Below, piece by piece: positions 6,701-62,945 of a DNA stretch of 64,000 nt. Where the stretch lies: assembly GCF_032854445.1 (NCBI RefSeq), contig NC_088300.1, forward strand, positions 41,506,458 through 41,570,457, in the 5' to 3' direction. The notes under the pieces are model-generated. The model saw nothing but the letters and a program-made list of their open reading frames with translations. It searched no databases and had not been told where the DNA came from. Positions within the stretch are counted from its first letter, which is position 1, and the number at the start of each line of letters is the position of its first letter. The translations under genes were made by a program, and so were the position numbers. Source of the stretch: Liolophura sinensis. Taxonomy: Eukaryota; Mollusca; Polyplacophora; Chitonida; Chitonidae.

Positions 6701-9700
6701 TAACACATAGGCCTACATGTGTGTACATATTGAAAGCATGTAACTTTGAGGGGTGCATGTATATTTTTAACTTTTTATGATCAAGTGATAGGAGGATTCA
6801 TATACCTAATCATTTATTTATTTGATTGGTGTTTTACGCCGTACTCAAGAATATTTCACTTATACGACGACGGCCATCATTATGGTGGGAGAAAACCAGA
6901 CAGAGCCCGAGAGAAAACCACAACCCTTCGTAGATTGCTGAAGACCTTCCCACTCACGGCCGGAGAGGGAGCCAGCATGAGCTGGACAAGAACTCACAGC
7001 GATCACATTGATGAGACGCTACTGGGTCATTGCGCCACACTGGCCTGCTAATAACTTTGGCCATGGAGGCCCTGGGGATTCATATACAGTGTCAGTCATT
7101 TTTACCTAGGGACAAATTGTGACAGATGGTCTCCACACACTGGAAGGCGATGACCAGGTTCCGGGGATCCTTCTCCATATCCAGAGCCTGGATAAAACCA
7201 TGTACAAACTCCCCAGACATCTTCTCTAGTTCTGGTAACAACAGGCATGGTTAGAGGCAGTTATGTAACTTTTATTAAACGGCCTGAAATTTCACTTAAA
7301 ATATTTGATGTATACTTGGCCGTTGTTCCTTTGATGACTTTTCACTAAAAACTAGAAGGTTTTTTAAAAAAAAGAAAAAAAGACAAGAACATACGTCAAA
7401 GATTAACGTGTACTGTGGTAAGTTTTTCTTTTCAATTTGTTCTTCTTGTTTTAGTTGATCTGTAAAGAATACATAACAATGATGAGTTTATTTGCACTTT
7501 TAAAAAATCTAAATCACTACATTGTACTATAAACACTGGAAGAAAGGTGAAACTATAGTGTATTTAATGTTTTACCTTTTAATCTAGATTTCAGTAAGTT
7601 CAACAAGATCTGGTAAACAGATCGCCTGTCGCGTTGGGCCAGGGATTGGTTGTACACCTCTGTAAAAATGGCGTGGCAAATTTTTCCGGCAGCACCATCT
7701 GGTAAAGAACAGGAAGTCTGTGGATTCCAACAAATAAGAGATGATCAGACATCAGAGTTTCAGGAAATCAGAGTTTTGCCATAATATCATGTCATAAAAT
7801 CCGCTCACCTTAACCATATTAAGATCAGTCAAATGTACTGGTGTCATGCTGTATTTCGAGCATTAAATCCTCTTACCAGGGCTATGTGGTTCTGTATTTA
7901 GAGCACTGCATCCTCTTACCAGGGCTATGTGGTTCTGTATTTAGAGCATTACATCCTCTTACCAGGGCTATGTGTTTCTATATCTAAAGCATTAAATCCT
8001 CTTACAAGGGATATGTGGTTCTATGTCTAGAGCATTAACTCATCTTACCAAGGCTATGTGGTTCTATATATAAAGCATTAAATCCTCTTACAAGGGATAT
8101 GTGGTTCTATGTCTAGAGCATTAACTCATCTTACCAAGGCTATGTGGTTGTATATCCAAAGCATTAAATCCTCTTACAAGGGATATGTGGTTCTATGTCT
8201 AGAGCATTAACTCATCTTACCAAGGCTATGTGGTTCTATATATAAAGCATTAAGTCCTCTTAAAAGGGATATGTGGTTCTATGTCTGGAACATTAACTCA
8301 TCTTACCAAGGCTATGTGGTTTTATATATAAAGCATTAAATCCTCTTACAAGGGATATGTGGTTCTATGTCCAGAGCATGAACTCATCTTACCAGGGCTA
8401 TGTGGTTCTATATCCAAAGCATTAAATCCTCTTACAAGGGATATGTGGTTCTATGTCTAGAGCATTAACTCATCTTACCAAGGCTATATGGTTCTATATA
8501 TAAAGCATTGTCCTCTTACAAGGGATATGTGGTTCTATGTCTGGAACATTAACTCATCTTACCAAGGCTATGTGGTTCTATATATAAAGCATTAAGTCCT
8601 CTTACAAGGGATATGTGGTTCTATGTCTGGAACATTAACTCATCTTACCAAGGCTATGTGGTTCTATATATAAAGCATTAAATCCTCTTACAAGCGATAT
8701 GTGGTTCTATGTCCAGAGCATGAACTCATCTTACCAGGGCTATGTGGTTCTATATCCAAAGCATTAAATCCTCTTACAAGGGATATGTGGTTCTATGTCT
8801 AGAGCATTAACTCATCTTACCAAGGCTATGTGGTTCTATATATAAAGCATTGTCCTCTTACAAGGGATATGTGGTTCTATGTCTGGAGCATTAACTCATC
8901 TTACCAAGGCTATGTGGTTCTATATATAAAGCATTGTCCTCTTACAAGGGATATGTGGTTCTATGTCTGGAGCATTAACTCATCTTACCAAGGCTATGTG
9001 GTTCTATATATAAAGCATTAAGTCCTCTTACAAGGGATATGTGGGTCTATGTCTGGAGAATTAACTCATCTTACAAGGCTATGTGGTTCTATATATAAAG
9101 CATTAAATCCTCTTACAAGGGATATGTGGTTCTATGTCTAGAGCATTAACTCATCTTACCAAGGCTATGTGGTTGTATATCCAAAGCATTAAATCCTCTT
9201 ACAAGGGATATGTGGTTCTATGTCTAGAGCATTAACTCATCTTACCAAGGCTATGTGGTTCTATATATAAAGCATTAAGTCCTCTTACAAGGGATATGTG
9301 GTTCTATGTCTGGAACATTAACTCATCTTACCAAGGCTATGTGGTTCTATATATAAAGCATTAAATCCTCTTACAAGCGATATGTGGTTCTATGTCCAGA
9401 GCATGAACTAATCTTACCAGGGCTATGTGGTTCTATATCCAAAGCATTAAGTCCTCTTACAAGGGATATGTGGTTCTATGTCTAGAGCATTAACTCATCT
9501 TACCAAGGCTATGTGGTTCTATATATAAAGCATTGTCCTCTTACAAGGGATATGTGGTTCTATGTCTGGAGCATTAACTCATCTTACCAAGGCTATGTGG
9601 TTCTATATATAAAGCATTAAGTCCTCTTACAAGGGATATGTGGTTCTATGTCTGGAACATTAACTCATCTTACCAAGACTATGTGGTTCTATATATAAAG

Positions 9701-12700
9701 CATTAAATCCTCTTACAAGCGATATGTGGTTCTATGTCCAGAGCATTAACTCATCTTACCAAGGCTATGTGGTTCTATATCCAAAGCATTAAATCCTCTC
9801 ACAAGGGATATGTGGTTCTATGTCTACAGCATTAACTCATCTTACCAAGGCTATGTGGTTCTATATATAAAGCATTGTCCTCTTACAAGGGATATGTGGT
9901 TCTATGTCTGGAGCATTAACTCATCTTACCAAGGCTATGTGGTTCTATATATAAAGCATTGTTCTCTTACAAGGGATATGTGGTTCTATGTCCAGAGCAT
10001 TAACTCATCTTACCAAGGCTATGTGGTTCTATATATAAAGCATTAAGTCCTCTTACAAGGGATATGTGGGTCTATGTCTGGAGCATTAACTCATCTTACC
10101 AGGGCTATGTGGTTCTATATATAAAGCATTAAGTCCTCTTACAAGGGATATGTGGTTCTATGTCTGGAGCATTAACTCATCTTACCAAGGCTATGTGGTT
10201 CTATATATAAAGCATTAAGTTCTCTTACAAGGGATATGTGGGTCTATGTCTGGAGCATTAACTCATCTTACCAGGGCTATGTGGTTCTATATATAAAGCA
10301 TTAAGTCCTCTTACAAGGGATATGTGGTTCTATGTCTGGAGCATTAACTCATCTTACCAAGGCTATGTGGTTCTATATATAAAGCATTAAGTCCTCTTAC
10401 AAGGGATATGTGGTTCTATGTCTGGAGCATTAACTCATCTTACCAAGGCTATGTGGTTCTATATATAAAGCATTAAGTCCTCTTACAAGGGATATGTGGG
10501 TCTATGTCTGGAGCATTAACTCATCTTACCAAGGCTATGTGGTTCTATATCGAAAGCATTAACTCATCTTACCAGGGCTATGTGGTTTCCTATCTACACC
10601 ATTAAATTCTCTTACCAGGGCTATGTGATTCTGTATTTAGAGCATTCAATTCTCTTACCAAGGCTAAAAGTCCATACAAGGCATGGGGTTGGATAGAATG
10701 ATGATCCTTTAGTTTCTCCACCATGTACGTCACCAGTATGTCAGCTACAGAGAAATGTTTAACACAGCATGAAAACATAATTGTAACAGATATTATCAGT
10801 TCTGAGGGCTGGCAGACGGTGGATACCAGATATTTATATTATCAGTCTGGTGAGCACACCCCTCACTAAAACATCTATATTTTGTGACTTGAAAGTTTTA
10901 CAAGTTATTGTGTTTTGTTCTGTTACTTTCATCCAAAAGAAGCAGACTCTGATCATACATTACACTCATGGCAAAGAATTACTTTCACTTAAATTATCAA
11001 ATAATGTTTATATGATATTAACAATGTCTTGGTCACTTACTTTCCTTTTCATTTAAAGTCCCTCTTGGCAAGCCATGAGCAATATCTGCTAACAGTTGTA
11101 CACCTCGAGCTCTCACACTGGCATCCGGATTAGTTAAGGAGGATCTAGTATTGAAAAAAGGTATTCGCCACAGGGTGGATTAGAAGTGATATCTACCTCC
11201 AGGGGTTGGGAGTTGTAGGGGGCTGTTAGGGGTGTTGGTGGATATGAGTGAACATGTGTTCTGATTCCTGTAACCCCTATCCCAATCCCCTAATTTGTTT
11301 GGGTGATGTATTTCGGTTATATTTATGTTGTAAAGAAAGTACATGTAAGTGCAGGTACATGAATTACATAAGCTATCCAGCAACTAAATTTGTTCCAAAA
11401 GACCTGATCACAGCTTTGAGGATGCATACTTCTTCCCTCTGAATACATGCTCAAACACATGTATAGCTACGTACGATCCCAGAGCTTTTGGGACTTATAT
11501 GGCCTCTTAATTGAAGGGGATACTGCAGCCATCCACCACCACCCCCAACCACCAGACTCCCTTCATTTTTTAAAAATAGAAACAGCTGTGTTTGATTTCT
11601 TTATTCATCTGAATTGAGTCAACTTTTAATTCAGTTCATTCTACATTAATTATTGAGTACAACATTTACTTAAAGTGCTGGCTAATTTCAGCTCATGAAA
11701 TATTTGATCTTTGTAAACTTATTCTGTTTTAGAAATATATTTATATTTTAGTCTAGACAGTCTCATACATCACCCTTAGAATGTGTCAAAATGTGTACAA
11801 ATTATCACTCTCATCATTCAGTATTCAAAAGTATATGAAACCCTTGTGATGTGAAATGAATGTTGGAGGCATGGGCGGCAATGTTCATCACAATTACAGC
11901 TACAGCTGTCCAAAACACCCCATTACTGACTTGATGACTCTTTACAACAGTTTGAACTTAATAACAGTTTATATTTCAGTTCTTGCATACCTACCCCACA
12001 TGTTCAACAATTTCCACAAGTGTAACATTTTTCTTCAGTAAATCTGAAATTAAAATATAAGAATATATGAAAAAGAACTGTCGCTTAATTCACAGCTAAG
12101 CAAAGAAATTCTGAAGAAATGGATTCTGAGGATCTCAGTAGTTCATCATTATTTCAGGACTTGGCTGAATAAGTAATACATCTAGCGGTGATAAATCATA
12201 GTCCAGACTTCCAGAAAAACCTAACAAAATGGAGGGGGTAACATGAAACAATTCTGTTTAGTCAGCCAGAGACACATCTCGACTACTTTAACACTACAAC
12301 CATGCCTGTATTAACATGCTGAGTGTGTAAGTCCATTTTTGTTAGCCCGGGCCTTTGGTGTTGTTTGTGCATGTATTTCATATCATTACCCAAGCGTACT
12401 TTCGAAATTAGCTTGTTTTATATTTAAAACATTGATATTTATTATTTCTGAAAACATGTCAGTTAAAAACTATTAAGATTGCTCTGTAATGCATATAATG
12501 ACTAAAGTATAGGCATTAATGACCAAAAAGGCCTGTACATGGAAATACCAGGTATGAGTGTAAAAACAGGACAGCATCTCTCCCTTTTTTATACAATATA
12601 TTACTGCACCATAGCGTGCATATATAACATAGACTAACTGTTAATATTTCCAGTCTACGTGAGAACATGTCCCCAGGCTCCCCAACTGTATTTATTTATT

Positions 12701-15681
12701 GTATTTATTTGACTGGTATTTTATGCCGTATTCAGGAATATTTCACTTACATATGACGGTGGCCTGCACTATAGGGGGAGGAAACCTGGAAGAGCCCATC
12801 TGCAGGAAGCTGGCAGATGTACGGCAGCAGAGATTACCAGCATTAAAGGGGATGGCTTAAAGACCAGAATGATGGACTGGACCAGAATAAAGACAGGGAT
12901 TTGAGATGGGTCGACTACACATGTGACCATGACTACTGTGCACCTCTTTCACAGAGAAAGGAGCACATTTCAAGCTATCCACAAATATATTATTCATTTA
13001 TTTGATTGGTGTTGTATCCCGCACTAAAGAATATTTCACTTATATGACCCCCTCCAGCATTATGGTCAGAGGAAACAGGGCAGAGCCTGGGGAAAATCCA
13101 CAGCCATCCGCAGGTTGCTGGCAGACTTTCCCATGTACGGCTGGAGAGGATGCCAGCACGAGCTGAATTTCAACTCATAGCGACCCCACTGGTGAGACAC
13201 TAATGGGTCATTGTGCCTCGCTGACGTTGTAACCACCTCGACCAAGGAGGCCCCTCCATAAATATGTTATATGAAGAATTGCTTTATTTTCAGGTCTATT
13301 TCCTTGCCATTGCTCTACTCATTGTTGTTCGAGTCATGTGATCAACCACTGAAAGGGCAAACAAGGGAGATAACCCATTCAAAGTGGCTTCCCAGGCCAG
13401 CATTCATGGCCGTTTTTTTCTTTTTTCATATGAAACTTGGCACGAAATTAAAGGATTAGTGCCCAGATTTACTACTAATTAGCTACCCCAAAAAATACTG
13501 GAAAAGGGCACATTAATCTGAGTAATATAGCACGGAAAATCACTTGATAATGAGGCAATTTTTATGCATTTTTTCCACGAACACTCGGTAGTCTCTGCCC
13601 ACCCAAACAAACTGTCAGATCTTCTTTTCTGAAAACTCTGAATCTTAACATCTTCCACAATGGGTTCAAATTCATATGCCAGTATATTTGCCTCTGTGTA
13701 GTTAAAATCCATCACGAAAATGACATCACTTTGATATAAATTCCCAGGTTATTTACGCCAGCTAGACTTGGCTAGAGATCGCCTAGGGCAGTAAATCTAT
13801 TGCTTTTGGTGGATATAAAGTCATGGCGTTTCTCAGAAGCTCTCTCTGTAATATACTGTTTAAACAGATTATAATCTTATAATTAGGATCAATAGCTAAA
13901 TCTGGACACTAATCCTTTATAAATCGTGATATACTGAATATTTTTGGATAGCTTGAAATGTTTTTGAATTTGTTGCCTTCATAGATGCCCAAGCTGTAGT
14001 TTCTGTGTTACGAACACATCAATCTCTAACACATCTGCGGAATGTGTACTACACAGAGAATAGAGACGTCGAATGCATATATTGAACCGTATATGCAGTG
14101 AATTTTCTCACACGACCCAACACTGTTCTCGAAGAGTAGCGTCGTAGCGTTCAGCTGGGTTGTTCCAGCTGCTAGGAGGATAGGTTGGTGCTGAACAGTT
14201 TAAACATACGAAAACAAACCATATGACGTCATCAGCATGAAGCAGTGTAATCTATATGTAAGTCAACGTGTTTAACTTGAGGGTGGATTACTTACACTCG
14301 CTGACCGATCTATGTATACTTTAGCAACTACATGTATGAAGTATAAATAACTAAAAGCAACAGCAAAATTGTACTTACACATGTTAATTTATTTTTTTTA
14401 ATTTTCGATCAAAATTTTGATATGTCCAGCTCAAAATATCCAGTCTTTATCATTTTAAATGGCAAATAAAAAAGTCTTTTCCAGTGCTCACATTAAAGGC
14501 CTACGTGGTACCTCTTTTTCTGATGTTTGTATGGCACGCTTGGCGTGCGAATATCTGGTGAGAGGGGAAAGTAAGTGTTTGAATATACAAGCCTGCAGGC
14601 TTTCATCCCGGGCTACATAATGCCAGTGACGACATAAAGCAGTTGAGCGAGCCGAGAGTCTGTAGCTGGTAATATCTTTTGTCCGGCACCGGCGTATGTG
14701 TGGACAGTTTACCGAGTGTTAACCCTGTTTACCGAGTGTTAACCCTGTTACCCTGTTAACTAAATATCTCGTTCATGATTGTAGTCTGTCGATCTCTTTT
14801 CCACATGTTTAATTTCCACATCTCAACACTCCCGACTGAAATCTTCGCGCTCATCCAGCAACCAGTATGGATAAATCACATGCGAAATTTGGTATTAATT
14901 CTTACTAGTTCTTGACATGTAAACCCTGTAGTAGTGCGCACCTTCTTTAAAGTGGACTCTTCCATGGAGTGATTGACGCGAGAGAAGTGTAATCAAAATA
15001 AAGCGGCGAATAGGTATCAATTTGAAAATCGAAAGGGAGTAAAAACTGAAAATTAATGTAAAATACATGTGAACAGGTGATTTAACAAACTGGTCAGCAT
15101 ATTTACGAAATGATGGCTTCATTCACTGCGTATACACTGTGATAACTGCAGTGAACTGAGTCCTAAAAAAATGGACACTTCCTATTATACCGCCGTTATC
15201 ACAGCGTATACACGGTGAATGAAGCCATTATTTCTTAAATATACTGACCAATTTCTTAGAACATCAAAAGAATGGGGGGACTGGTAGTGAAACACTTTAT
15301 ATACCCGGTCAGTTACCGTACTGGTAGCTAGTTTAAGATGTTTCTGATGTCATCAGTGAAATAACACTAAAGTGTTAGCAATGCATTGCAATCCTCAAGA
15401 ACCAAAGGCAGCAAATTGGTCTTTTCGAATAGGGGACGCAACTCCACAACATAGTAGGCTACATCTGTCAAATAGCGTTGTTTTTGTTCCCAGAGGAAAA
15501 AGTGGCAGGTGATTAATATAAATAAGTAACCACACAACCACGAAAGATATAACTAGTGAGTTATCATGCAAAATACCTTACGCAACAAAAGATTCATACC
15601 ACTGACAATATCGGCTGAGGAATTAGCAGCAAGTCCTACGATATAATCCTCAACTGCACTTCGCCACATGGGCGCAGCCAT
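792..15681 (-). CDS. MMS19: MMS19 homologue, N-terminal 401 codons (12 exons; continues off left edge)
   Basis: MMS19 is a HEAT-repeat adaptor of the cytosolic iron-sulfur assembly targeting complex; it delivers Fe-S clusters to DNA replication and repair enzymes. Exons in transcript order: 15582-15681, 11995-12043, 11041-11144, 10659-10744, 7576-7717, 7106-7231, 5392-5453, 4042-4203, 3288-3365, 2205-2294, 2042-2090, 792-946. All have GT/AG borders and the phases join without a stop (1203 bases). Family matches include RARGVQLL (exon 3), KLKDHH (exon 4), EKDPRNL (exon 6), VEEMFEVFSCYFP (exon 7), and in exon 12 a CQAM-type helix ending MPTLMEQF. The start ATG at 15681 gives MAAPMWRSAVEDYIVG, like the animal N-terminus. 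Exon 1 needs the GTAAGG donor after 15582; the next possible donor breaks the frame. Human MMS19 is about 1030 aa, so roughly 630 aa lie beyond the left edge. Oddity: a minisatellite of about 2.8 kb repeats the exon 4 donor. Confidence 0.93.
969..1895. repeat. 51-bp minisatellite in MMS19 intron 11, about 18 copies
   Basis: The unit is 51 bases, beginning CATGTTTTACACATAATATC and continuing with TAGTACATTATCTACATTCA. Copies are highly similar with a few base changes that group by position (TTTGAC, TTTACA and TTCACA variants). It ends about 22 bases from the exon 12 acceptor at 947, so it fills the region where the branch point and polypyrimidine tract should lie. Confidence 0.95.
4898..5139 (-). 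mobile_element. SINE-1 copy in MMS19 intron 7
   Basis: Minus orientation: the tail (TTATTTATTTGACTG on plus) is at the left and the tRNA-like head (GAGGCCCC) at the right. It is flanked by a perfect 13-base target-site duplication, GGCATGTTTTTTA, at 4885-4897 and 5140-5152. Confidence 0.9.
5793..6265. repeat. Degenerate tandem repeat, about 180-bp unit, 3 copies (MMS19 intron 6)
   Basis: The block GTAATTTACGGTAATTAATA followed by CACACAG recurs at about 5861, 6045 and 6219, and weaker similarity extends through the intervening sequence. No coding potential is seen. Confidence 0.7.
6319..6586 (-). mobile_element. SINE-1 copy in MMS19 intron 6
   Basis: Minus orientation, with a (TTTA)n tail on the left and a diverged head on the right (CTAACCCCTCTAGG). 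A short target-site duplication GGTATCA is visible at 6312-6318 and 6587-6593. Confidence 0.85.
6806..7075 (-). mobile_element. SINE-1 copy in MMS19 intron 6, next to exon 6
   Basis: Full-length minus-oriented copy with a perfect 12-base target-site duplication GGATTCATATAC at 6794-6805 and 7076-7087. It lies only about 30 bases from the exon 6 donor. Confidence 0.92.
7848..10668. repeat. About 43-bp minisatellite spanning the MMS19 exon 4 splice donor
   Basis: About 65 copies (estimated from length) of a roughly 43-base monomer, arranged mainly as 87-base dimers. On the minus (gene) strand nearly every monomer contains CCTTGGTAAGA or CCCTTGTAAGAG. The rightmost copy contains the last 8 bases of exon 4 (TAGCCTTG) and its authentic donor GTAAGAG at 10658. 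The array fills intron 4 to about 130 bases from exon 5. Confidence 0.95.
12689..12846 (-). mobile_element. 5'-truncated SINE-1 copy in MMS19 intron 1
   Basis: Minus orientation. The tail and central part (TTTATTTGACTGGTATTTTA, then GGAATATTTCACTTA) are present; the tRNA-like head is missing. Confidence 0.8.
12985..13256 (-). mobile_element. SINE-1 copy in MMS19 intron 1
   Basis: Near full-length, minus orientation, ending with the head GAGGCCCC at 13248-13255. The flanks ATATATTAT and ATATGTTAT may be a decayed target-site duplication. Confidence 0.85.
13451..13917. mobile_element. TIR element of about 467 bp flanked by TA (non-autonomous DNA transposon)
   Basis: The ends AAGGATTAGTGCCCAGATTT and its complement AAATCTGGACACTAATCCTT form terminal inverted repeats of about 20 bases with one mismatch. 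TA flanks both sides (13449-13450 and 13918-13919). A minus-strand open frame (about 13479-13715) inside has no recognised domain and may be a remnant of the element's coding region. No superfamily can be assigned beyond the TA flank. Confidence 0.65.
15090..15251. repeat. Fold-back inverted repeat, 57-bp arms with 48-bp spacer
   Basis: Arms 15090-15146 and 15195-15251 are inverted copies of each other (for example GAATGAAGCCAT against ATGGCTTCATTC) with only a few mismatches. The repeat lies in MMS19 intron 1 about 330 bases from exon 1. It could be a MITE relic or a local inversion duplication. Confidence 0.85.
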
Positions 15682-15966
15682 TTTGCTTTCTCTCTACCCT
15701 CCGTTTTTTCCCGTTTTTTTCAAATACTATTACAAGGATGTGTTAATTTGCAGATTACTGCTAATTATCCAACATATGCTTATACTAAGTTCATTTTGAT
15801 CAAATTTCGTTATTTCTGCTTTCTACTTTTTTTTTTTGCCCATTCGCTGCAGATATGAACATGCGCTGTAGGTATATGACGTCACGGCAGAGGCGGAAGA
15901 AACTTTTGTGGAAGGGATTCCCCAACGAAATATACAGTTACCACCGTCGCCCTACCCTCGGGCAAC
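15682..15966. promoter_or_regulatory. Divergent promoter between MMS19 and UBTD2
   Basis: The two start codons are 285 bp apart, head to head. A perfect CRE (TGACGTCA) lies at 15877-15884, followed by an ETS-like GCGGAA near 15893 and preceded by an NRF1-like half-site, ATGCGC, near 15861. The MMS19 side is pyrimidine-rich (15682-15720), and a T tract lies near 15830. No TATA box is evident. These element types are common in bidirectional housekeeping promoters. Actual transcription start sites cannot be placed from sequence alone. Confidence 0.7.
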
Positions 15967-18900
15967 ATGGGTGGGTGTATTGGTGCTCACAGAGACGGTA
16001 ATTCACCATCGGGTGAGTCTTCAGATGTCACAGGTATGGTGTATAATGGACAGCGGACTTGTATTGAGATTAACTCACCAGTGTGTCAGTGTCTCTGTTC
16101 GTGTATCAATCATAACAAATGTCGGTCCCATTCATTTCACTTGCTCACTTGACGTGCAGTTTGATTCAATCGGTTATCAAGATTACAGTTAGGTTTTGCG
16201 ATTCCGCATCTTCTGGGAATGTGTATATTGTGCCATTGCACATTTGCTTAATTTATTATGTTTTATCAATGAAAGCATTAGTGAGAACGGACAATTGCAA
16301 CTGCAAATGTTCTGATTTGCAGCAGGTAAATGTTCAGTAATTGCACCAAATTATGATTTAATCATGGCAGTTACAGATTTAGATGGAAATACAACATCTT
16401 CCTTTGTTCTGGGGAATTGCACCAATGCGTCAAACCATTCCTTTGATCTGAAATCAGCTTAGACTATAGTTACTATTACTTTTAAAAATGTTTTGTCTCG
16501 TGGGTCTACTCAATGAAGATTAGCTTGCATGGGATAGTCGCCATGCTGTCAATGCCTAGAGCTTAGTGTTAATAAGCAGTCCTTACTCACATAAGATTAG
16601 TGTTTAGTTTTGAATACTCATTTCCAGTGATCATCACTCATAGATTTCATGCTGTGGTGAAAAGAATAAACATAGGCTAGGTTCGTGAAACAGAATCACA
16701 GGTCATGTGTGTGATGATACTGTAAGTGTTTTAATTGTGAAGATGCACATGTATATTTTACTGTGTATGGATACTGTATCTTGAGATTATGTACATGGAA
16801 CTTAGCTCTGTGGTTCCTACCTGACAGGACAGGGTATCACTACACATGTTTATGGAATATTCTGTCCTGTCCCCCCCCCCCCCCCCCCCCACCCAGTATT
16901 GGACTGGCCTGCCTTGCTGAGTGTACCGGATGGGTCTGTATGGCTGAGTGGTACATGTACCAGACCGTGCCCTTTTGCTAAATGTATCGAATTGAGATCT
17001 CAGGATGAACGTGTCAGAGAGGGCTCTCAGGATGAATGTATCAGCCTGGGCTCTCTGGTTGAATGTACTGAAGAGGGCTCTCTGGGTGAATGTATCAGCA
17101 TGGGCTCTCAGGCTGACTGTATCGGATGGACTTCAGGGGCTCTTCAGTTGAACGTATCAGACTGGCCTCCTTGGGTGAATGCATGCGGTTGAGCTCCGTG
17201 ACCGAGTGCATGGAGATGACATTGTAGAGGAGTATGTAGTACTGTAGATGAAGGTCGGTTCCCTGTGGTACATGTATATGAGTACACAGGGCTGAGGGCT
17301 GGCTAGTTGCACATGTATGGGGTTGTTTGGGATGGACACCTTGGACAGAGGTATGAGGCAGGGCTCTAGTACTGACTGCATGGGGGTGTACAGCGGCTGA
17401 AGCGATGGGACATTATTCTCTGACATGATCAGACCAGTCTATAAGGTTGGGCATTCTGGCCCAATGTAAGGGGGTAGACACCTGGACAAAGGTATGGGAC
17501 TGGATTCCCAGGCTGAAAGCATGTAACTGTGCTCTTTGGCTAAATTGTGAGGATGGACATTTAGGCTGGATTATGGATCTGGGCTCTTTGATTGATTGCA
17601 TGAGGCTGGGCTCTGAGGTTGAGTATTTTAGGCTGCCACTTCGCTATGAGTATTTTATGCTGGAGAATTTTTGTTGAGTATATGAGGCTAGGCTCTTTAG
17701 CTGAGCATATGTGGCTCAAGAGGCTGACCTGCCAAAGCCATGCAGTGGCTGGTCACTTGTCACCTTGCCTACACTGTATATGTACATGTATATAGTGCTA
17801 GCAGCCAGTCGAATTGTGCATTGTAATTGAGAACAGCATAAAGTTATAAACCATGGCAAACCATGTCATTCAGCATACAACTATCATTTTGAACCAAGAA
17901 CCTTTGACTGTTTAATAGGTGGTTGACAGTGACAGCTGACAGAGCATTGGATTGTTGCTTTTTCCTTGTTGAAATATCACATGAAGATTTGAACAAGCTG
18001 ACCCCCGAAACCATCCCATAATTTTAAGAACAACTAAAACTGGCAAAACAAACCATCTGTGAACGTAGGCAGTATCTACATGTATGAATGAATGCTGTTG
18101 TTTGCTTGAAGAAAGTCTCTGCGAAAAAAAACAAATGGCACCAACTGATCAGTTAAATATACTCAGGGTAGTCACTATTGTGACCAAGTTCACCAGCCTC
18201 GGAGCACTTTGGGAGTTTTCACCGAGCTCCGAGCAAGATCAAAGATGACGTAATTTCCAAACAAAATCTGTCCATTGACAGAAAATATGCATAAAATAGA
18301 GAGGTAATGAACAGATGTAAAAATACCTCAAAAATGAAAATTTAAGAAACATGATTTTCATCTTCAAAATCCTCTTCATGTATGCATTAAGTGTAAGAGG
18401 CTGGGTTACTTAGCTGAATGTATGTGGGCAGGTTCTTTGATTAAGTGTAGGAGGCTGGGTTCTTTGGCTGAATGTATATGGGCAGGTTCTATGATTGAGT
18501 GTAAGAGGCTAGGTCCTTAAGCTGAATATATGAGGCTGGGTTCTTTAGTTGAATGTATGTGGGGAGGTTCTTTGATTAAGTGTAGTAGGCTGGTTTCTTT
18601 AGCCGAATGCATGTGACTGTTCTCTTTGATTAAGTGTATTAAAAGAGGATGGACTCATTCGGTGAATATTTGTGGCTGTGCTCTTTGCTTGTGTGTAAGA
18701 GGCTGGGCTCTGGTTAAGTAGGCACATCTCATCAGGTACTTTGTACTGGACACATCTGGTGACAAAATGCTGTAGTGGAAGAAATGAGAGTTGGATTTGA
18801 TCTGGATTCCTGATTACTATCCAGCAGAAGTAATTGGTGCCCTTAGTCAAAGAAGGCTTATGTTGTCTTGCAATCATGTTCACTGTCTTTTGAGTCAAAT

Positions 18901-30822: not shown

Positions 30823-30970
30823 AAAAAATGGTGTTGCCTAGATTAAAGATAATGAGATATTGGTGGATGACCAGCCAGACAAGCAGGCAAAATCACGATA
30901 CCGTCCTCTAATATTATGATCTGAAAATTGAGTTTCCATATTTTCTCTCTCTAATAAACTATTTTTATGA

Positions 30971-43711: not shown

Positions 43712-43814
43712 CTTGTATGTGACACTTGCCTTCTAAACCTCTCTATTTATACCTTGTAATGAACATAGCTTGTGTCTGCCACTTGCTTGCTAAACATCTA
43801 TTTGTATCTCTGCA

Positions 43815-43855
43815 CTTGAGTATGTTGTTAAACACAAATCAAACAGAAATAAATA
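43815..43855 (+). mobile_element. SINE-1 tail remnant supplying a poly(A) signal to the zinc finger gene
   Basis: TTGAGTATGTTGTTAAACAC, then ATCAAACAGAAATAAA, resembles the 3' tail of SINE-1 (TTGAGTACGGCGTAAAACAC, then CAATCAAATAAATAAA). The AATAAA at 43848-43853 is the first good poly(A) signal, 137 bases after the stop codon. The match is short and diverged. Confidence 0.4.
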
Positions 43856-52398: not shown

Positions 52399-52815
52399 CA
52401 TGGAGAAAGCTGAAATGGGAAAATTTTTGAGTGAGACTTTAAAAAGTGCTAATCATGGCTTCAGTCTTTGGCAGCTCATATGGCATTCCAGTGCAGATAC
52501 ATACCTGAAACACGCAAAGCTGAGATTTTAACTGTCTATAATTTCAATCTGTCTCGCTACTCATACAGGTATCTTAGTATTAACAGGTCAGTATATCCCA
52601 TTTTGGTTCTGCAAAATTCCACCTCCATGACTACCAGTAATATTTCTATATTTCTATTTATCCATTTCTCTATTTTTTAATACATGATAACTGGGAACTA
52701 TTTTAACCCACTATATCCCAATCAGAAAAATCTGAAAATAAAATTTAACTGGATGTTACAAAAGCCACATCTACATCTACATGTAGTAGCCTCTCCCTAC
52801 GCTGCTGTCTCGGTG

Positions 52816-52903
52816 ACATGTACTACAGTAGATATAAGGATTAGCAGCTTCTGGAATTAAAGGTCTTCGATTTCCAAAAGCTTGGTTTAGAAGGTTTGGA
52901 AGA
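52816..52903. repeat. Left copy of a direct repeat flanking the assembly gap
   Basis: GGTGACATGTACTACAGTAG continuing to CAAAAGCTTGGTTTAGAAGG is repeated almost exactly at 53107-53200 on the other side of the N run. Confidence 0.95.
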
Positions 52904-53103
52904 NNNNNNNNNNNNNNNNNNNNNNNNNNNNNNNNNNNNNNNNNNNNNNNNNNNNNNNNNNNNNNNNNNNNNNNNNNNNNNNNNNNNNNNNNNNNNNNNN
53001 NNNNNNNNNNNNNNNNNNNNNNNNNNNNNNNNNNNNNNNNNNNNNNNNNNNNNNNNNNNNNNNNNNNNNNNNNNNNNNNNNNNNNNNNNNNNNNNNNNNN
53101 NNN
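52904..53103. other. Assembly gap of exactly 200 N
   Basis: Two hundred unresolved bases, a likely placeholder length. It is flanked by near-identical sequence on both sides, so it may be an unresolved tandem repeat or an allelic overlap that failed to merge. Confidence 0.98.
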
Positions 53104-53200
53104 TTCTTGGTGACATGTACTACAGTAGATATAAGGATTAGCAGCTTCTGGAATTAAAGGTCTCCCATTTCCAAAAGCTTGGTTTTAGAAGGTTTGAAGA
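53104..53200. repeat. Right copy of the direct repeat flanking the assembly gap
   Basis: Near-identical to 52816-52903, with small differences (TCTTCGA against TCTCCCA; one extra T in GGTTTTAG). Confidence 0.95.
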
Positions 53201-56200
53201 GCTTATGGAAGCAGGAAAGCTCAAATCAAGCACTACGGCAGGTATATTCAAATCTAATCGACCCCAGAAGTAATATCTGCTTCCAGTCTGGTCTCTCTTT
53301 AAATAGAGAAGTTAGTTCTTAGTGCCAGTAAAAGTGTCCTTTTCAAAACTAAATACCATTTAAGATCTGACTTTGTTTCCCAAAATATGGGAGCAAGAAT
53401 TGAGTTGAACAGACGAGCTAGAAATAGGTCATTGATTGACCTAAACTTTCATCCATGAATAAGTTGCTCCTCTTGAGTGTTTCTGAGAGTTGTGTTGATC
53501 TTGAATAGAAAGGTGTTGAAAAGTTTTGGAAAGTAGAATGATATCCTACTGAAAAATGTATATTTCAGTACCAAATATAGTAAGCAACACATCAGAACAG
53601 AGAGCAGATCTGACATGGGTGAGATTGAACGAACTAGCGAAAAGCCGTCGACGTGTCTGCCGTTGCCTGTCTTGCCTGAAGTCCGCCACCATCTTGATAC
53701 TGGTGCTGTAATGAAGAAAACAAACAATTGTGTTCGTAGATGTTTTACTGTCATGTAGACTGGAACAAACAGTGCCTTGGAACAAAGACGTGGTTTGGAA
53801 TATAAAGTCCATATTCAAATACATGTATGTGTAAATTGAGTGGACAATTGTAGTTTTTGACCACATGTTTGTAGGCTTTGTAGAATTGAATAGTGGAGAT
53901 ATGTTTGTGGCTTTGTCAAACGGAACATCATTGGATGTACCTATCTGTGACCAGTCATTTGTATTCAAGTCATATCTCTTGTAATCAATAATCAACAGTG
54001 TCACAATAATGATTCACTTCTGAGGAACATGATTGGTTTTGGTCCTGATGAGGTCAAATTGTTTCATAGGTTATATGAATTATTCAACCATTGTTTACAG
54101 ATCTACTTTTTTTTTACTTCATTTCATGAATTCTTTTTTAAATCTTAATATAATTCTGTGATAGTCATCTGTAGCAGTTGTTATGTCTTTTTTTCTTCTT
54201 ATTTTTCCATTTATTACCTTCATAGTCATCTACCTGTATATTACAACCTAAGGCTTTTTATATTATTTCAGTACCTGAATGGAAAAAAGTTTGAAATTGA
54301 AAAATTAAATCGTGAAAAACAGAGTGTAACACATATGTTGATGAAACAATTTTGGTAAACTCTGTCAGGAAAAGAAGAGCAGTGATGGAGATATTTGAGA
54401 CAACTAAGAATGAATGGCATTCAGAAAAAATATCGTCACAGAAGTTTCCTGCGCTAAGTTATGTTCTCGATCTAGAAGGAAAATTATTACGGCAGGGACC
54501 TATTTAACAGGACTACGAATACCATTGGTAACTGCGATAGTAACCTTCAGATAACCAGGTTTAGACAAAAACTCTCCCCATTAAGAGAAAGACCTTGCCA
54601 ATGACGAAATTATTAAGTTAAACTTTTGACTTAAAGACATTAGGGAGTTCATCTGATTTCCAGAGCAACCTTCAAGTAACAGTCTCGTGTTAAAACTTTT
54701 TATCTCCCACTATCAATCGGTTATTAAGTATCCAGCTCCCTATAGTTTCTGTGGAAAATGTGGCGCTCATAAACGCCTTCGCTGCTTGCAGGTCGATGTT
54801 ACCCGTGTTCGACAAAGAAAGATATCAGATAATAGATAGACTTTAATAAATACTTTAAATGACGGTTCCTCCTGATTTTGTCATATAGTAAACGATATCT
54901 GATATTTCTGCAGACAACTGTAACTGTTGAATTTGGACGGTTGGGTAAAGTTGCCGCGAATCTTTGGTGCCTCCAGAACAGGCATTCAGGAAATGGCATT
55001 TCCAGTGTTCGTCCATGTAAATAATTCATATGCTTTGTGAATATTGGTAGATGTATGGTTTCGGTGCTTGTCATAGATTGATATCACATTTTTACAGTAT
55101 CTCTGGTCTTTTGGATTGACATTGGTATATTTCCAGCCGTGCGCTAGGGCGTGCACTTTTATTTCGGGGCCCTCTTAGACGAAGCGTCTTAACGTTACGA
55201 GCACGTAACTACCATGGCAACCAGCAATGTAGGTATTACGTCGTTATGGCCGTTGCGTGCTCATATCAAAACGTTGAGTAGGCTTCGTATAAGTGGTCCT
55301 TGATGGCTGTATCTGTAATGGCTAGCGAACAACTTTGCGTACCGTCAGTGGGATTACAGAGTACGAAGCGGTTGATGAACAACGCATATTCACTGAGATT
55401 ACCTTGTGCGGCTTTAGACGACAATGCGATGACCAGATACGATCAACAAGGAATCGTTAAGCGGGTGTACCGGTACTTTTAGTGTTAAGTGATATAGCGG
55501 TGTTCAGTGGACCTCGTGGTGTTCGATGGGCATGCCATTACTTCTACTGTTTGGCGGGCAGTACTCGTTTGGCAGACCGCGTATCTATTTTCTCATATCT
55601 GCGCAATCGTAAGAGTCAAGACAATTTCATGTCGACTGCTGAAGGAATTTCTTGTACAAGACCCTTTGGTAACGTAAAAACTCGTTTTCAACCCATCAAG
55701 ATACAGTATACTGACCAAAACGTATATGAATTTGTGTGATTACGAAAGTGTAAGGTACTTTTACTACGTCTTCAATGCATGCATGGTTATAGCTGCAATG
55801 TGTTTATGTCTCAAATATTTGATTGAAGATAGCATGACAATTGTATCAATCTACTTTTTAGTCCAGAAATGCTGTATTTCACCTAAAGTTTGGGAAGGCC
55901 CATATAACAGTGCACTTTCGGAATCACATTAACGCCTGACAAGGATACTTTTGAAGGCCTGACAATGATGTTTCTGATTTCTGTTAAGAAATCAATCAAA
56001 CCTCATAAAAAAAAAATTATGTGACCCTAATAGGTGGACGAATCAATCAAAATCAAACCAAATGCGTCATTTGAAAAATGCTAAACTGAAACCCAGTAAT
56101 TAGACAATTGCAGAAAGCAGATCATGTTATAGCCCGTGTGTTGTTTTAAATTCACAAGCAGTCTATACATGCGATTATAGCGATGCGAAAAGTCACAAAT

Positions 56201-57408
56201 TTGTCGGTCCGATGGGTCATAAAGACTTCAGTTCATGTTTTACATACACACATGCACATTGATGGAAACGTTAACTCTACACTAATGATTCTATATAGCT
56301 TTCACGGCATCTAGATCTGAAATATATAGGCCTGCAGAAGTTCCATTGATTGTGACTGTTCAACGTCATCTCCAGGGAATCATTTAGAAACCTTCAAATT
56401 GGGTCATACTTCAACAAAAAAGTGTCGCTTAATATTGATAAGGGGAACACGTATTATTCGAACATAGATATATGGTAAGCGAGCAATATCGACGGCTCTT
56501 TCGTGACAAACTATAGTCAAATGCCAAGAGGCAGTGTACAAAAAAAGTCTTCTTCCTCTTGATTCACACCGCTGTGTTTATGTATATGTACACGTATCAT
56601 CGCGAGACACCCACCCGTTTCTCTTCAGGAAAACTGTTTGAAGATTACTCATCTTTTGACACTTGTTCAATTCGCCACGTAACCGAAAAAATATGTCTGC
56701 ATCAATACAAAAGTATTTTTTTTTTTACTTTTATCAACTATATATGGCCCTGTGGATACCATAATTAATTGGCCTGCGTGTGGAACCTTCATTACAGATA
56801 GGGCTAAAGTACGCGCAGCAATGCATACCAGAATTATGCGCTTCCTGAAGATAATCTAACGGAACCACTCAGCTTATATAGTTCCCACCTTCCAAGATAC
56901 TTATAGACGATTTTTTTCCAGCTTCTGTAAGATGTACAACGGGTGCAAACGTACATAAGCCTATATTTATATATTATCCATGTAGCGCCTCCCACCTCGC
57001 GCGCGCACCACCCCCCCCCCCCCCACCCCCAACTATGCCGACAGCACCACGTCTAGTTGAAATAACTTAGATAACATTTTTCTACTTGTTTGTGCTTTAC
57101 CGCATTCGTGAGATCGTTTAAGAAACGTGAAGAAACTAACCATTAGAGAATATTTGTCTATAATTCCCAACACCGACTACCAACCCCCGGCGCCGACTTA
57201 TGAACTTCCTTTCCAATGCATGACAAATATGTTCTTAGCAATTGGTGTAGCTCATCACATGAGATGAGTGCCCACGAAGCATGAGGCAGGCCTCCACAGA
57301 CACGCCCGGGGAGAGGGCTGACTGATAATACTACACTAACGTCTATTTTTAACCCGGGATGAGGATACACGGCGTCTAAGACACACTACAAGCCATCTCT
57401 CCGGAAAG
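53201..57408. other. Intergenic stretch, no confident gene
   Basis: Two CpG-richer islands stand out, near 53620-53700 and 55150-55680. Short open frames occur at both (minus 53546-54004; plus 55300-55482 and 55482-55739), but none has a recognised domain or clear splice partners. An imperfect RFX/X-box-like palindrome (ACTACCATGGCAAC, 55208-55221) lies 90 bases before the plus-strand frame. A poly-C tract is at 57011-57024. The AKR promoter should lie just before 57409. Confidence 0.4.
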
Positions 57409-60400
57409 ATGGCTTCCCAACAACAAAAAGTTGTTCGCTTGAACACTGGGGCTTCTATGCCAATCGTAGGACTGGGAACATTTCAGGTATGTTAAACAAT
57501 GCTTGTTCCACTGATTCTAATTTAATATGCCTTCGGTATTTCCACAAATCGGGTCCACATCTACGAATTTACGATGCGAAAGTCCACTGGAACTTTGTAA
57601 CTTTAGACTCGACTACGTTAAGATGCACCATATAAAGTCATGGGATCAGATAAGGGGAGACAACTTTAAGCACTTGAAATTTAATTTTTCTCCTTTAAAT
57701 CACATTTTTTTTCATTGATTTCCATCTTCGTTGAACTGATTTAATGCCAAATTAGCAATCTATAAGGTGCTGTGGCACCATGCAAATACTGTTTTTGAAT
57801 TTGTAAATGGAACGGAAAGTTGAAATAATCCCATATTTGATTGGAATTTGGATTAAAGTAAGCTCACATCCTTAATTACCCCCCCTTGAGTGTGCCTGAT
57901 TTGTGGAATTTGGCAACTTTTGTCTGTTCTGGTGTTTACTTCGTTCGTTTGAAATTCAAGACCTGAGAATGTTTGTAAAATGACTCAAGAGTTTATTGTT
58001 TAATGAACAATAATCCTTCTCAACATAATCAGGGCCCGTACCTATCAAGTAACTCAAGACTTATGTTATAATGTACATTATTACGTACATTGTTCTACAG
58101 TCAAGAATCAGTGTGCAAATTTTAACCTTTCAAGAACAAAAACATTTTATTTGTAGTTGTGTTTGATTTAAGTCTTAATATGTTTGACAAATATGGACTC
58201 AGGTTTGTAATCAACTACCTAACTAAAGATAGGCGAACTGACGTATTCCTAGGCCACAACAAACGTTTGTCAACATTACGCCAGTCTCTCTACCGATATA
58301 AAAGTGCCTCACCATCTTTATAATCAGTAGTAAAGAATATAACAATATCTCATTTTCTAGGTGAAGGGTGAAAATGCGTGTAAATTGATAGAGGCTGCCA
58401 TTGATGCAGGTTACCGTCACATCGACACAGCCCAGACGTACGAGAATGAGAAGAAAATAGGCGAAGCAATCCAGAAGAAAATAGACAAGGGTGTTGTGAA
58501 GAGAGAGGATTTGTTTATCTCAACTAAAGTATGTACACTAAATATCACTGCATGTATGTCAGTTATACATGTGGTTCTGTGTGTAAATGATTGATTGTAC
58601 AGGCACCTGAGCAGACCCATTACTGGCCTTGTTCCATTATTCGCTCGTACACAAAGATGAATGTGGGCAGTAGCAGTTAGTGTTCTGGGTGTGGTTATTA
58701 TAAAGAGAGTATAGTTTTGTTGTTTTTATGACAACAGAGAGAAATCAAGGAATGTAGACATGACAGTTTCTTCAAAGTAGCCCTATCATTACCTGGTAAT
58801 ATGAAACCATTCATGCCACATCTTTAATACTACAAGATAGAAAGGTTATACATGTACCCTAGTTCTTCTAAAATTTGGGACAGGTATTAGTAGTGATGAA
58901 AGTAGAATATTACATTTACAAGCCTTTTGAAAAGTAAAGATATGAGTATGTTGTTCATTAGATGGTCTAACCGTGTGAGAAAAAAGAAACTCAGTATTCC
59001 TGCTAGAAGTACATATATATTGACTAAAATGAGGAGGCCAGGTGTCCCAAATTTTAGAAGATGTAGGATATGTATGTCTTTTGGTGTGAGTTATTTTAAT
59101 GCATAGACAGATGGCGGTATAATTTATGCCTGTTGACATGTGACAAGATCAGAATTTTCAGTCATTTCTTTTGAAGAATGATCAATCAACAATTAAGTGT
59201 CCTGTTTGCCTTTCAGCTACCAGCAGCCTGCCTGGGTAAAGATGCAGTCAAACCCTGCCTGCTCAAATCTCTCAAGGAACTCAACTTGAAATATGTAGAC
59301 CTATACCTCATTCACATGCCTTTTGGTTTAAAGGTAAATGACTTCATTTTTAAAACTTGATTCTTCTAGTGTTCAGTACATCATTACCTACAATGTTTAT
59401 TATCTGGATGAAATAAGTAAAATAATATTTCTAACAAAAATTTTTTCAGACACCATTAGTGAGTTCATACTGGCTTCCTCTTTGGTTGAACCTGAGGAGG
59501 TCAGCCAACTACCTGCAGATGGGCTTGGGTTTCCGGCGGGCTCTGCCCACTTTCCTTCCAACACAATGCTGGTCGCCATCAAATAAAAGTGAAATATTCT
59601 TGAATATGGCCTGAAGCACCAATCATATGAATAAATAAGTTTGAGCAGTAATGTATGTAATCTATTTATGTTTGTTGTAATGCAACAACTTACGCTCAGT
59701 GAACATGTTGTTTGTCTTTATATTCTCAGAACAAAGGGGATGGTACACTTTTCCCGACAACAATGGATGGAAAGTTGCTTCTTCAGATTTATGACATCAC
59801 TGAAACGTGGAAGGTGTGTGTATGGATAAATAGAGGATATTGCACAGTGAAGGTTGAATGCCATAAATATTTTTAGAGTGAGAGGTGAAAATGGAAACCC
59901 ACAAGACCTTCACTGTGCAATATTCTATTTATTATTTATATTTTGACAAATATCATGATTTTGTGTATTTGAACAAGTTTAAGCAATGTTTTTAGCTGTA
60001 GGCCATTGCAGACTTGTGTATATAGCATGACGTCGCACATGACATCTTGTATGATGTCGTGTTTTGTTGCATGATGTAAGAAATGTTAAAGTTGACTGAA
60101 CTTGTATTATGACATCATTCTGCTTTATGGAACCTCATAAAACAAAATGTTTCACCTTTATATAAATAATAATCAAATTAATTAAATAAGTCTTAGGACC
60201 ATTTTTTAAAGCTTATGGCTAATAAGTTTTGGTTTTAAGTATTTTTGACACAATTTTTGAAAGAATCAACAAGATTAGGCATGTTGAGTTTTTGCTGTGG
60301 GTTTTGATGTAATGACTTATTCATGCTCTATCCATATACAGTATTTATCTATATATTTGTAGGCCATGGAACAGTTAGTTGACCAAGGTCTCACAAAGGC

Positions 60401-62632
60401 AATAGGAGTCTGTAATTTCAGTCGATATCAAGTCTCCTCTCTCCTCATGATTCCTGATATCAAACACAAGCCTGCTGTCCTTCAGGTGAGTTTCATTCTG
60501 ATATCCTCTCACATAATGTCTGATATCAAACAGGGAAAGGTCTCCTTCAGCTAGGTGAGTGTCATTCTGATATCCCTAAACAGTATCAGATATCAAAAAC
60601 AAACTTTCTGTGTTTCAGGTGAGTTTCATACTGATGAAATGAATCATCTCATACATGATTTCTGATATCAAACACAATGCTTCTATCCTCAAATGAGTTT
60701 CATTCTGATATCCTCTTGCCTGATGTCTGAAATCAAACATAATCTTATGTACTTCAGGTCAGTTTCATTGTGATATCACCCATCAGCAACAAACAACAAA
60801 ATCATCTGATACAATATTTGATATCAAGCATAACCCCACTGTTTTGGAGGCGAGTTTCATTCTAATATCCTCTCACATGAAATCTGAAGACTTTATGGTT
60901 TTGAAGTCTATTTTCAACACATGTGAAAATGTTAACATTACAATGAAATTATATTTTTTTATAATTTTTTTTTTGCCTTATTAAACTCTCCTTTTCATTT
61001 ACTTGATTCGTAAGGCATCAGATATTCAGTAATCTATGATACTTTTGGAATGTTTTAAAATTGTTTCTGAATGTTTACCTCCAAGGTTGAAATGCACCCT
61101 TACTTGCCCCAGGAGAGGCTTGTCGAGTACTGTGGTGAGAATGGCATAGTGGTCACAGCTTACAGTCCTCTGGGATCCCCCAAACCCAAGTAGGTCGCCT
61201 TCAAGGTTCATGCGTCTCATCCAACCAACCCATTATTCTAATGATATGTATGCTAAATATTTTCTTAGAAAATTAGGTAAAATATTTTTGGGGGGATTTT
61301 GACTGACAAAAGATGACTAGATGTATTTATGAAATATTTGCCACTCTCATTTAAAGATTATGACCATTATTCAAACTCCATTTTCAATATGAATTTGCAA
61401 CATCAACACCAAGATGTGTAGAAAGGTAAACTAACCAAGTGACTCTGCATTTTATTGGACGACCTAAAGTTTTAACAACAGTGTGTTAAATCTGCAGTCT
61501 ATGTGAAATGCACCCACTTTTCTCAGCCCTCAGTGTAATCCACCAGTATTAATTTTTCCCTCTTATATTTGATACAGAAATGCAAGATCTGTAAAAGTAC
61601 ATTGTTTTTCCTTTTTCCACACTAATCACATTAATTATGTATGAGGTACAATTGTTAACATCTGGCTGTTTTCTGTTGATTAGTGGAAATCGTCCCATGT
61701 TAATAGAAGAAGCTCTGGTCAAAGGTATTGCTCACAAGTACAAGAAAACTGCAGCTCAGGTGAATATTTGGTGTTAAATAAATATCAGATCTCTTTCACA
61801 GTTGCTCAGTTGGTTAGCGCGCTAGCGCAGCGTAATGACCCAGGAGTCTCTCACCAATTCGGTCGCTGTGAGTTCAAGTCCAGCTCATGCTGGCTTTCTC
61901 TCCGGCCGTATCTGGGAAGGCCTGTCAGCTACCTGCGGATGGTCGTGGGTTTCCCCCGGGTTCTGCCCGGTTTCCACCCACCATAATGCTGGTTGCCGTC
62001 GTATAAGTGAAATATTCTTGAGTACGGCGTAAAACACCAATCAAAAAAAAAAAAAAAAAAAAAAAATCTTTCACAGTTTGCTTGAAGTTTATTTTTGAAA
62101 AGGTAAGAAAAGTGAAAGGGTTGAAATACAGTCATTTTCAGTAACTGTAGACCAGTCATGTCAAATATATTGCAGTTAACATCACTATATCAACACCACA
62201 CTATATCTTCTATTACCTAAATCTGGGTAAGCCATGGGGCTAAGGGGCATATCATTTGGCACAATTTAAGCATCTACATGAACAGTTAGAATAAAACACT
62301 AACTGAGGTAAATTGAAAAAAAGGCTGAAATTCACCAATTACTTGTGACCATTTGTCAACTGTATGTATCACACTGTTTTTGGTTTTACTCTTTATGCTG
62401 GAGTTGTTTCTATTTAATACACTGGTGTATGGAGATCCACAGCAGGAAATCATAGGGTGGATTTAAGAGAGTTGGGGACAAATATACTTGTATGTGAGCT
62501 CGCTTTTAAAATATTCGTCCCCTGATTATTATTTGTTGTATTTTGTAGGTGGTCTTAAGGTGGAACATTCAGAGAGGGGTAACAGTAATACCCAAAACTG
62601 TACAGCCCGAGAGGATGAAGCAGAATATAGAT
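57409..62632 (+). CDS. Aldo-keto reductase (AKR1-like), 8 exons, 278 codons; 3' end off window
   Basis: Exons: 57409-57486, 58361-58528, 59217-59333, 59730-59813, 60363-60485, 61086-61189, 61684-61759, 62549-62632; GT/AG borders and compatible phases. It is an NADPH-dependent carbonyl reductase of the (beta/alpha)8 aldo-keto reductase family, cytosolic. The catalytic tetrad is visible: Asp in GYRHIDTAQ, Tyr in TYENE, Lys in LFISTK and His in LYLIHMP. Other family blocks: [46 protein letters not shown], and the cofactor-binding [17 protein letters not shown] (IPKT rather than the usual IPKS). Typical members are 310-325 aa, so about 40 residues should follow beyond position 64000; I found no exon for them in 62633-64000. 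The 5' splice sites of exons 5 and 8 each lie in a tandem repeat. The AKR1 subfamily is inferred, not resolved. Confidence 0.93.
59465..59640 (+). mobile_element. SINE-1 3' two-thirds in AKR intron 3
   Basis: Plus orientation. CATACTGGCTTCCTC, then CCAACTACCTGCAGATGGGC, AAGTGAAATATTCTTGAATA and a tail ending CACCAATCATATGAATAAAT. Confidence 0.85.
60430..60890 (+). repeat. Tandem repeat of the AKR exon 5 end plus splice donor, about 6 copies
   Basis: A unit of roughly 65-85 bases, made of the last 45 or so bases of exon 5 (CCTGATATCAAACACAAGCC ... CTTCAG), the donor GTGAGTTTCATT and about 10 more intronic bases, recurs in decayed form through the first 400 bases of intron 5. A perfect TTTCAGGTGAGTTT recurs at about 60616-60629; other copies have GTGAGTG, GTCAGTT, ATGAGTT and GCGAGTT. 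Confidence 0.85.
61804..62066 (+). mobile_element. Young SINE-1 copy in AKR intron 7
   Basis: Plus orientation, nearly complete: GCTCAGTTGGTTAGCGCGCT head, central body, CGGCGTAAAACACCAATC and an A tail of about 23. It is flanked by a perfect 12-base duplication TCTTTCACAGTT (61792-61803 and 62067-62078). It is the least decayed copy here and a good reference for the family. The family might correspond to a known molluscan tRNA-SINE such as RUDI, which I cannot verify. Confidence 0.95.
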
Positions 62633-62945
62633 GTATGTAGGATACATACACATAGTATGTAGGACACATGTAGTATGTAGGACACACATAGTATGTAGGA
62701 CACACATAGTATGTAGGATACATACACATAGTATGTAGGACACACATAGTATGTAGGATACCCATAGTATGTAGAACACACATAGTATGTAGGATACATG
62801 TAGGATACATGTAGGATACACATAGTATGTAGAACACACGTAGTATGTAGGACACACGTAGTATGTAGGACACACGTAGTATGTAGGACACACGTAGTAT
62901 GTAGGACACACGTAGTATGTAGGACACGTAGTATGTAGGATACAT
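62633..62945 (+). repeat. About 18-bp minisatellite starting at the AKR exon 8 splice donor
   Basis: GTATGTAGG, the authentic donor of exon 8, is followed by sixteen further GTATGTAGG or GTATGTAGA copies in units like GTATGTAGGACACACATA. Unit length is mostly 18, with 16- and 22-base variants. Confidence 0.95.

What the first reader, a model, noticed from the sequence alone, without database searches (positions are those of the whole stretch)
7848..62945. General hypothesis: minisatellites in this genome are seeded at 5' splice sites
Three strong arrays, in two genes on opposite strands, with unrelated units of about 18, 43 and 70 bases, each start at or span a splice donor. The 51-bp array in MMS19 intron 11 ends about 22 bases from an acceptor. 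If arrays arose at random in introns of 0.1-7 kb, three exact donor overlaps in one window would be unlikely. Possible mechanisms (inference): replication or repair slippage at co-transcriptional R-loops near exon borders, or selection that preserves arrays supplying redundant donors.
Basis: inference. Interest (0 to 1): 0.85.

Follow-up and report, generated by a model that had tools for sequence, protein, structure and literature searches.

The report
Splice-junction minisatellites in a chiton
In what is very probably the chiton Liolophura japonica, short stretches straddling the end of an exon and the start of the next intron have been copied in tandem into the intron, a pattern described before in lancelet genes, so some introns carry rows of spare-looking splice sites that the cell presumably has to ignore.

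Summary
The arrays are real. Two of the three named ones (43 bp in MMS19, ~70 bp in an aldo-keto reductase gene, AKR) truly span the 5' splice site: exon bases are copied in the units. The third (18 bp) begins exactly at intron base +1, but its exon side is not copied. The 51-bp array does end 23 bp from an acceptor. The genome fits the chiton Liolophura japonica.

I tested the general claim on 33 other stretches (242 kb), picked without regard to repeats. Eleven of 151 donors lie in the edge unit of a local tandem duplication, against 3.4 expected from intron control points (P 0.0006). For acceptors it is 5 of 150 against 3.7 (P 0.30). Seed placement on 69 arrays agrees: 11 at donors against 3.5 (P 0.0003), 5 at acceptors against 3.5 (P 0.28). 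So donors are over-hit about threefold, but 58 of 69 arrays are not at a known donor, and donors do not significantly exceed acceptors (Fisher 0.20).

The structures match the "mirages" of amphioxus genes. Selection for redundant donors is not supported. The cause of the donor bias is unknown. It is a known kind of structure in another phylum, frequent enough to study.

The parts
10659..10744 (-). MMS19 exon (VADILVTYMVEKLKDHHSIQPHALYGLLAL); 5' splice site 10659|10658 (TTG|gtaaga)
   Evidence: PDB 6tc0_C match; sequence; splice signals
7858..10666 (-). 43-bp donor-spanning array (86-bp higher order), 64 intronic copies found, 63 with intact GT; includes the last 8 exon bases
   Evidence: TRF; all 32 genome matches of the 201-base border query lie inside this locus
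60363..60485 (+). Aldo-keto reductase exon ending ...KHKPAVLQ|gtgagt
   Evidence: tblastn; a PF00248 hit to another exon of the gene
60450..60900 (+). Degenerate ~70-bp array whose units carry ~36 exon-derived bases plus the donor region
   Evidence: by eye; 5 copies; TRF sees only 60656-60777
62549..62632 (+). Aldo-keto reductase exon ([26 protein letters not shown])
62633..62945 (+). 18-bp array that begins exactly at intron base +1; exon side not copied; 15 of 17 copies keep GT
   Evidence: TRF
970..1889 (-). 51-bp array ending 23 bp from the 3' splice site of the next MMS19 exon; exon not copied
   Evidence: TRF
738..946 (-). MMS19 exon between the 51-bp and 21-bp arrays (donor CAA|gtatgt at 738 placed by eye from the extent of the 6tc0 match; the script picked 792)
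109..707 (-). 21-bp array starting about 30 bp after the donor of the same MMS19 exon; donor not copied
   Evidence: TRF

Best explanation
These are 'mirages': local tandem duplications that happened to include an exon-intron junction and then grew by copy-number change into intronic minisatellites. The exon-side copy stays fixed by coding selection, the other copies become intron, and splicing must use the copy next to the exon (inferred; no RNA seen). Junctions are hit recurrently and independently in this chiton, donors about three times more often than random seeding predicts, acceptors also but not clearly in excess. Shown: junction copies, their number, local origin of the MMS19 unit, the excess at donors, unrelated arrays on one intron in AKR paralogues. 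Inferred: duplication by replication slippage or end joining, growth by unequal exchange, neutrality, and a mutational rather than selective cause of the donor excess.
For: Junction copies with exon bases, judged by eye: donors L006, L011, L012 (two), L020, L021, L026, L037, L033 and L034, L015; acceptors L013, L019, L024, L026. Excess over intron controls at donors: set 1, 8 of 87 against 1.59, none of 5000 resamplings as high; still 6 against 1.36 (P 0.0024) at 22 or more of 24 identical, so slow exon decay alone does not explain it. Seed-placement null with array DNA collapsed: 11 of 69 against 3.54, P 0.0003. Young duplications show the first step: 2 copies (L021), 3 copies (L037, L019), homologous run = whole units plus 3-8 bases. 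All 32 genome matches of the MMS19 border query lie inside its own locus. The same AKR intron carries a 70-bp array (window), a 61-bp array (L037), a short degenerate row (L038), and no evident row in the first 200 intron bases of L035 and L040: the intron is older than the arrays.
Against: No RNA, so use of the exon-proximal donor is not shown. Set 2 alone is not significant at donors (2 of 29, P 0.26 at 19 of 24; 3 of 29, P 0.07 at 18; 1 of 29, P 0.59 at 20) and has 0 of 29 at acceptors. The acceptor excess of set 1 is fragile (P 0.024 at 19, 0.054 at 20, 0.42 at 23). A simple permutation of TRF arrays gives weaker support (donors 6 against 2.06, 29 of 2000, at score 100 or more; 92 of 2000 at score 50 or more; with narrower windows up to 298 of 2000). 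The fold excess could be partly inflated because exon-anchored edges decay more slowly. L013:3154 counts among the 8 of set 1, yet its exon side is not clearly copied, and L018:672 counts among the 5 acceptors on the same terms; L034, which looks real, scored 18 and is not counted. Exons are Pfam or paralogue hits with splice sites chosen by a recalled weight matrix. Pooled P values treat borders as independent.
Confidence: 0.75

Rival explanations
1. Chance: this genome is so rich in intronic minisatellites that some must touch splice sites; there is no preference for junctions.
For: 900 of 5439 intron control points of set 1 lie inside arrays with copies on both sides; random seeding already gives about 2.2% of donors in an edge unit; acceptors fit chance (5 of 150 against 3.7, P 0.30); set 2 alone fits chance.
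Against: Donors exceed chance in two differently built tests (P 0.0006; P 0.0003) and at high identity.
Confidence: 0.15
2. Selection keeps arrays because they supply redundant splice donors.
For: 152 of 161 intronic copies over 13 donor arrays keep GT, and 70 of 161 score at least as high as the used donor by a recalled matrix (summed); GT slightly better kept than the average pair (Wilcoxon P 0.037).
Against: Only 3 of 13 junction-spanning unit lengths are multiples of three, so downstream donors mostly shift the frame; conservation of -1..+5 is near average (mean rank 0.58).
Confidence: 0.04
3. The arrays mark recent intron gain by tandem duplication of coding DNA at AG|GT (Rogers model).
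For: Units carry AG|GT with exon bases, and repeats at exon-intron borders are said to form new introns in human genes (PMC2812944, passages).
Against: Units contain intron sequence as well as exon sequence; the AKR intron is shared by paralogues with different or no evident arrays. Not tested for the MMS19 intron.
Confidence: 0.03
4. Detection effect: array edges anchored in an exon decay more slowly than edges inside introns, so junction arrays are over-counted without preferential seeding.
For: The exon side of the border is under coding selection, intron edges are not (reasoning); some junction arrays are old (70-bp AKR array).
Against: The excess persists among nearly identical copies (22 or more of 24: 6 against 1.36, P 0.0024; 23 or more: 6 against 1.36, P 0.0030; set 1) and in TRF edges; acceptors should profit equally but show little excess.
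Confidence: 0.12

Closest known systems
Mirage minisatellites of amphioxus (Adh3, globins, troponin C, PGBD5)
   Same: Tandem units span an exon-intron junction, at 5' or 3' junctions, with variable unit length, many but not all units keeping AG/GT (PMC3087553 and PMC3902484, passages)
   Different: Host is a mollusc; here frequency is estimated (11 of 151 donors) and a donor excess over controls is tested; splicing and instability not examined
Intron gain by internal tandem duplication (Rogers 1989; Gao and Lynch 2009, known to me here only as cited in PMC3087553)
   Same: Duplication of a segment with splice signals
   Different: Here at least one intron predates its array (AKR), and units carry intron DNA
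Tandem repeats modifying human genes in segmental duplications (PMC2812944)
   Same: Minisatellite expansion, in some cases at the exon-intron boundary
   Different: Those change exons or may form new introns, often with alternative transcripts (passages)

Membership tests
Mirage minisatellite | Tandem unit contains both exon and adjoining intron sequence | tested here: met
   Window: 43-bp (8 exon bases) and ~70-bp (~36 exon bases) arrays; the 18-bp array fails; 11 donor and 4 acceptor cases outside the window judged by eye
Mirage minisatellite | Many units retain splice signals | tested here: met
   GT intact in 152 of 161 copies over 13 donor arrays, the 18-bp one included (summed)
Mirage minisatellite | Both 5' and 3' junctions affected | tested here: met
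   Donors and acceptors in the sample; in the window donors only
Mirage minisatellite | Regular splicing not disturbed | not testable with these tools
   No RNA data
Mirage minisatellite | Copy-number instability between haplotypes or in soma | not testable with these tools
   One search found a single copy of the MMS19 border in the assembly; no reads
Intron gained by tandem duplication | Intron younger than, and created by, the duplication | tested here: not met
   AKR intron shared by paralogues L035, L037, L038, L040; MMS19 intron not tested

The most novel reading that the evidence does not exclude
In chitons, as independently in lancelets, 5' splice sites are mutational hot spots for tandem duplication, through a process tied to transcription or splicing, so thousands of introns have been lengthened by arrays of near-perfect decoy donors, and these lineages have a splicing rule that reliably picks the exon-proximal copy.
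Probability: 0.3. Interest if true: 0.75.

Novelty: new member of a known kind. Interest (0 to 1): 0.5.

Why it matters
The papers I saw describe mirages in lancelet genes. Finding them at about 7% of sampled donors in a mollusc suggests a recurrent route of intron growth and gives natural experiments on donor choice: an exon end followed by 1 to 64 copies of its own splice site, about 4 in 10 of them as strong as the real one by a simple recalled matrix (70 of 161). It also turns the question whether splice sites attract tandem duplication into one that an annotated genome can answer directly.

Tried and rejected
Lancelet as the host: rejected, no GFP-family hit (a weak negative, as the tool itself says) and a mitochondrial gene order that I recall as the ancestral molluscan one. 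Simple TRF permutation: weaker support that depends on window and score. Alternative-exon copies in a myosin gene (L006:5800 donor, L006:6794 acceptor) were first counted as hits, then dropped. L013:3154, L017:9524, L025:6704, L018:823 (donors) and L018:672 (acceptor) have arrays near but no clear border copy in the stricter view; L013:3154 and L018:672 nevertheless remain in the automatic counts. L026 has a second likely acceptor case (near 2381) that the border count does not include, as its acceptor was not placed; it is among the 5 acceptor arrays. Extra exons found with paralogues: 38 donors and 37 acceptors; I dropped 3 of each (two copies inside the L019 array and an alternative exon) to reach 35 and 34, recounted; one of the two automatic donor hits was such a copy. 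In set 1, 94 exons gave 88 donors and 88 acceptors with acceptable signals, 87 each after the drop. Donor-strength purging of copies and GT protection: no clear signal either way. Haplotype copies of the MMS19 border: none in one search.
Full report
HOST. The window lies at C6:41506458-41570457 of a 609,464,459-bp assembly in 632 contigs. A 15,209-bp mitochondrial contig has a gene order that I recall as the ancestral molluscan one. The published Liolophura japonica assembly has 609,495,693 bp in 632 scaffolds, scaffolded with YaHS (PMC11068029, passages). I take the host to be this chiton; the totals differ by about 31 kb.

OBSERVATION. TRF confirms the arrays. The 43-bp array on the minus strand covers the last 8 bases of an MMS19 exon and 64 further copies, 63 with GT, filling nearly the whole intron. 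The ~70-bp array in an aldo-keto reductase gene repeats ~36 exon bases with the donor; copies are diverged and TRF sees only part. The 18-bp array starts at intron base +1, but its exon side is not copied. The 51-bp array stops 23 bp before an acceptor. Of 18 window exons, two donors and no acceptor have border copies at 19 of 24 or better.

GENERAL TEST. The window raised the hypothesis, so I tested it elsewhere. Set 1: 23 stretches, 188.3 kb, chosen by myosin, Sec1 and cullin Pfam hits, 94 exons. Set 2: 10 stretches, 53.3 kb, 30 exons: nine chosen by AKR hits (relatives of a window gene) and one because it holds the rest of MMS19 next to the window (exons). None was chosen by repeats. Splice sites were chosen by signals near the hit ends. 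Test A asks whether a 24-base window crossing the border recurs within 1.5 kb on the intron side only, at 19 or more identities; the control asks the same of intron points away from known exons. Against sequence from other loci, the chance rate was 0.0006 for donors and 0.0017 for acceptors. Set 1: 8 of 87 donors against 1.59 expected by locus-matched resampling (0 of 5000 as high), 5 of 87 acceptors against 1.67 (P 0.024). Set 2: 2 of 29 against 0.97 (P 0.26) and 0 of 29. Adding exons found with paralogues (35 donors, 1 hit; 34 acceptors, 0 hits, after drops): 11 of 151 donors (95% interval 3.7-12.7%) against 3.4, P 0.0006; 5 of 150 acceptors against 3.7, P 0.30; donor versus acceptor Fisher 0.20. 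These pooled P values treat borders as independent.

Test B placed one-unit seeds at random after collapsing every TRF array of score 100 or more: 11 of 69 arrays span or abut a donor against 3.54 (P 0.0003), 5 an acceptor against 3.54 (P 0.28); within 100 bp, 18 against 7.1 (P 0.0007) and 12 against 7.2 (P 0.05). Set 2 alone: 3 of 20 at donors against 1.24 (P 0.12), 0 of 20 at acceptors. A cruder permutation gave weaker results.

ANATOMY. Units at donors run from 31 to 140 bp with 8 to ~95 exon bases. Young cases have two or three copies: L021 (104 bp), L037 (61 bp), L019 (95 bp, acceptor). In L015 a 121-bp unit includes about 29 exon bases. The same AKR intron has unrelated arrays in the window and in L037, a short degenerate row in L038, and none evident in the first 200 bases of L035 and L040, so seeding was repeated and the intron is older. 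The MMS19 border query matched only its own locus (32 matches; that search can miss repeats).

MECHANISM. Local duplication across the border followed by unequal exchange fits all of this. Because an array grows from within, its outer edge stays where the seed was, so an edge at a junction points to a seed at the junction (reasoning). Selection for spare donors is unlikely: unit lengths are multiples of three in 3 of 13 and copies are not clearly protected. Why donors are over-hit is open; pausing or R-loops remain untested. How the exon-proximal donor is chosen among as many as 64 copies, if it is, is also open.

KNOWN. Amphioxus mirages are the same kind of structure (PMC3087553, PMC3902484, passages); those passages report that splicing seems normal in Adh3 and globin genes and that copy number is unstable. 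The original Adh paper (NAR 2002) is not held. Nine searches of the held library (a tenth, concerned the host) showed me no report of mirages outside lancelets; most lists were short or empty, one search showed 20 of 624, and subscription journals are mostly missing, so this is weak evidence of absence.

Noticed in passing
L006 (G000 C1:26636500-26646499) 5696-5800, 6189-6284, 6792-6887: Three tandem copies of one myosin exon (positions ~118-152 of the head domain), looking like alternative exons.
   Followed up: partly
G000 contig C99: Seven head-to-tail mitochondrial cox1 copies at ~15.5-kb steps: probably a mitochondrial concatemer left among the scaffolds.
   Followed up: no
window 16998-18638: 27/54-bp arrays between the MMS19 5' part and UBTD1-like exons; possibly intergenic.
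   Followed up: no
window 63737-63873 and L031 20-1571: A 28-bp array (55.7 copies in L031) appears to lie further along the same AKR intron as the 18-bp array, across the window end; the two pieces were not compared.
   Followed up: no
L026 (G000 C11:28508300-28514299): One cullin gene stretch carries junction arrays at one donor and probably two acceptors, so some genes seem especially prone.
   Followed up: partly
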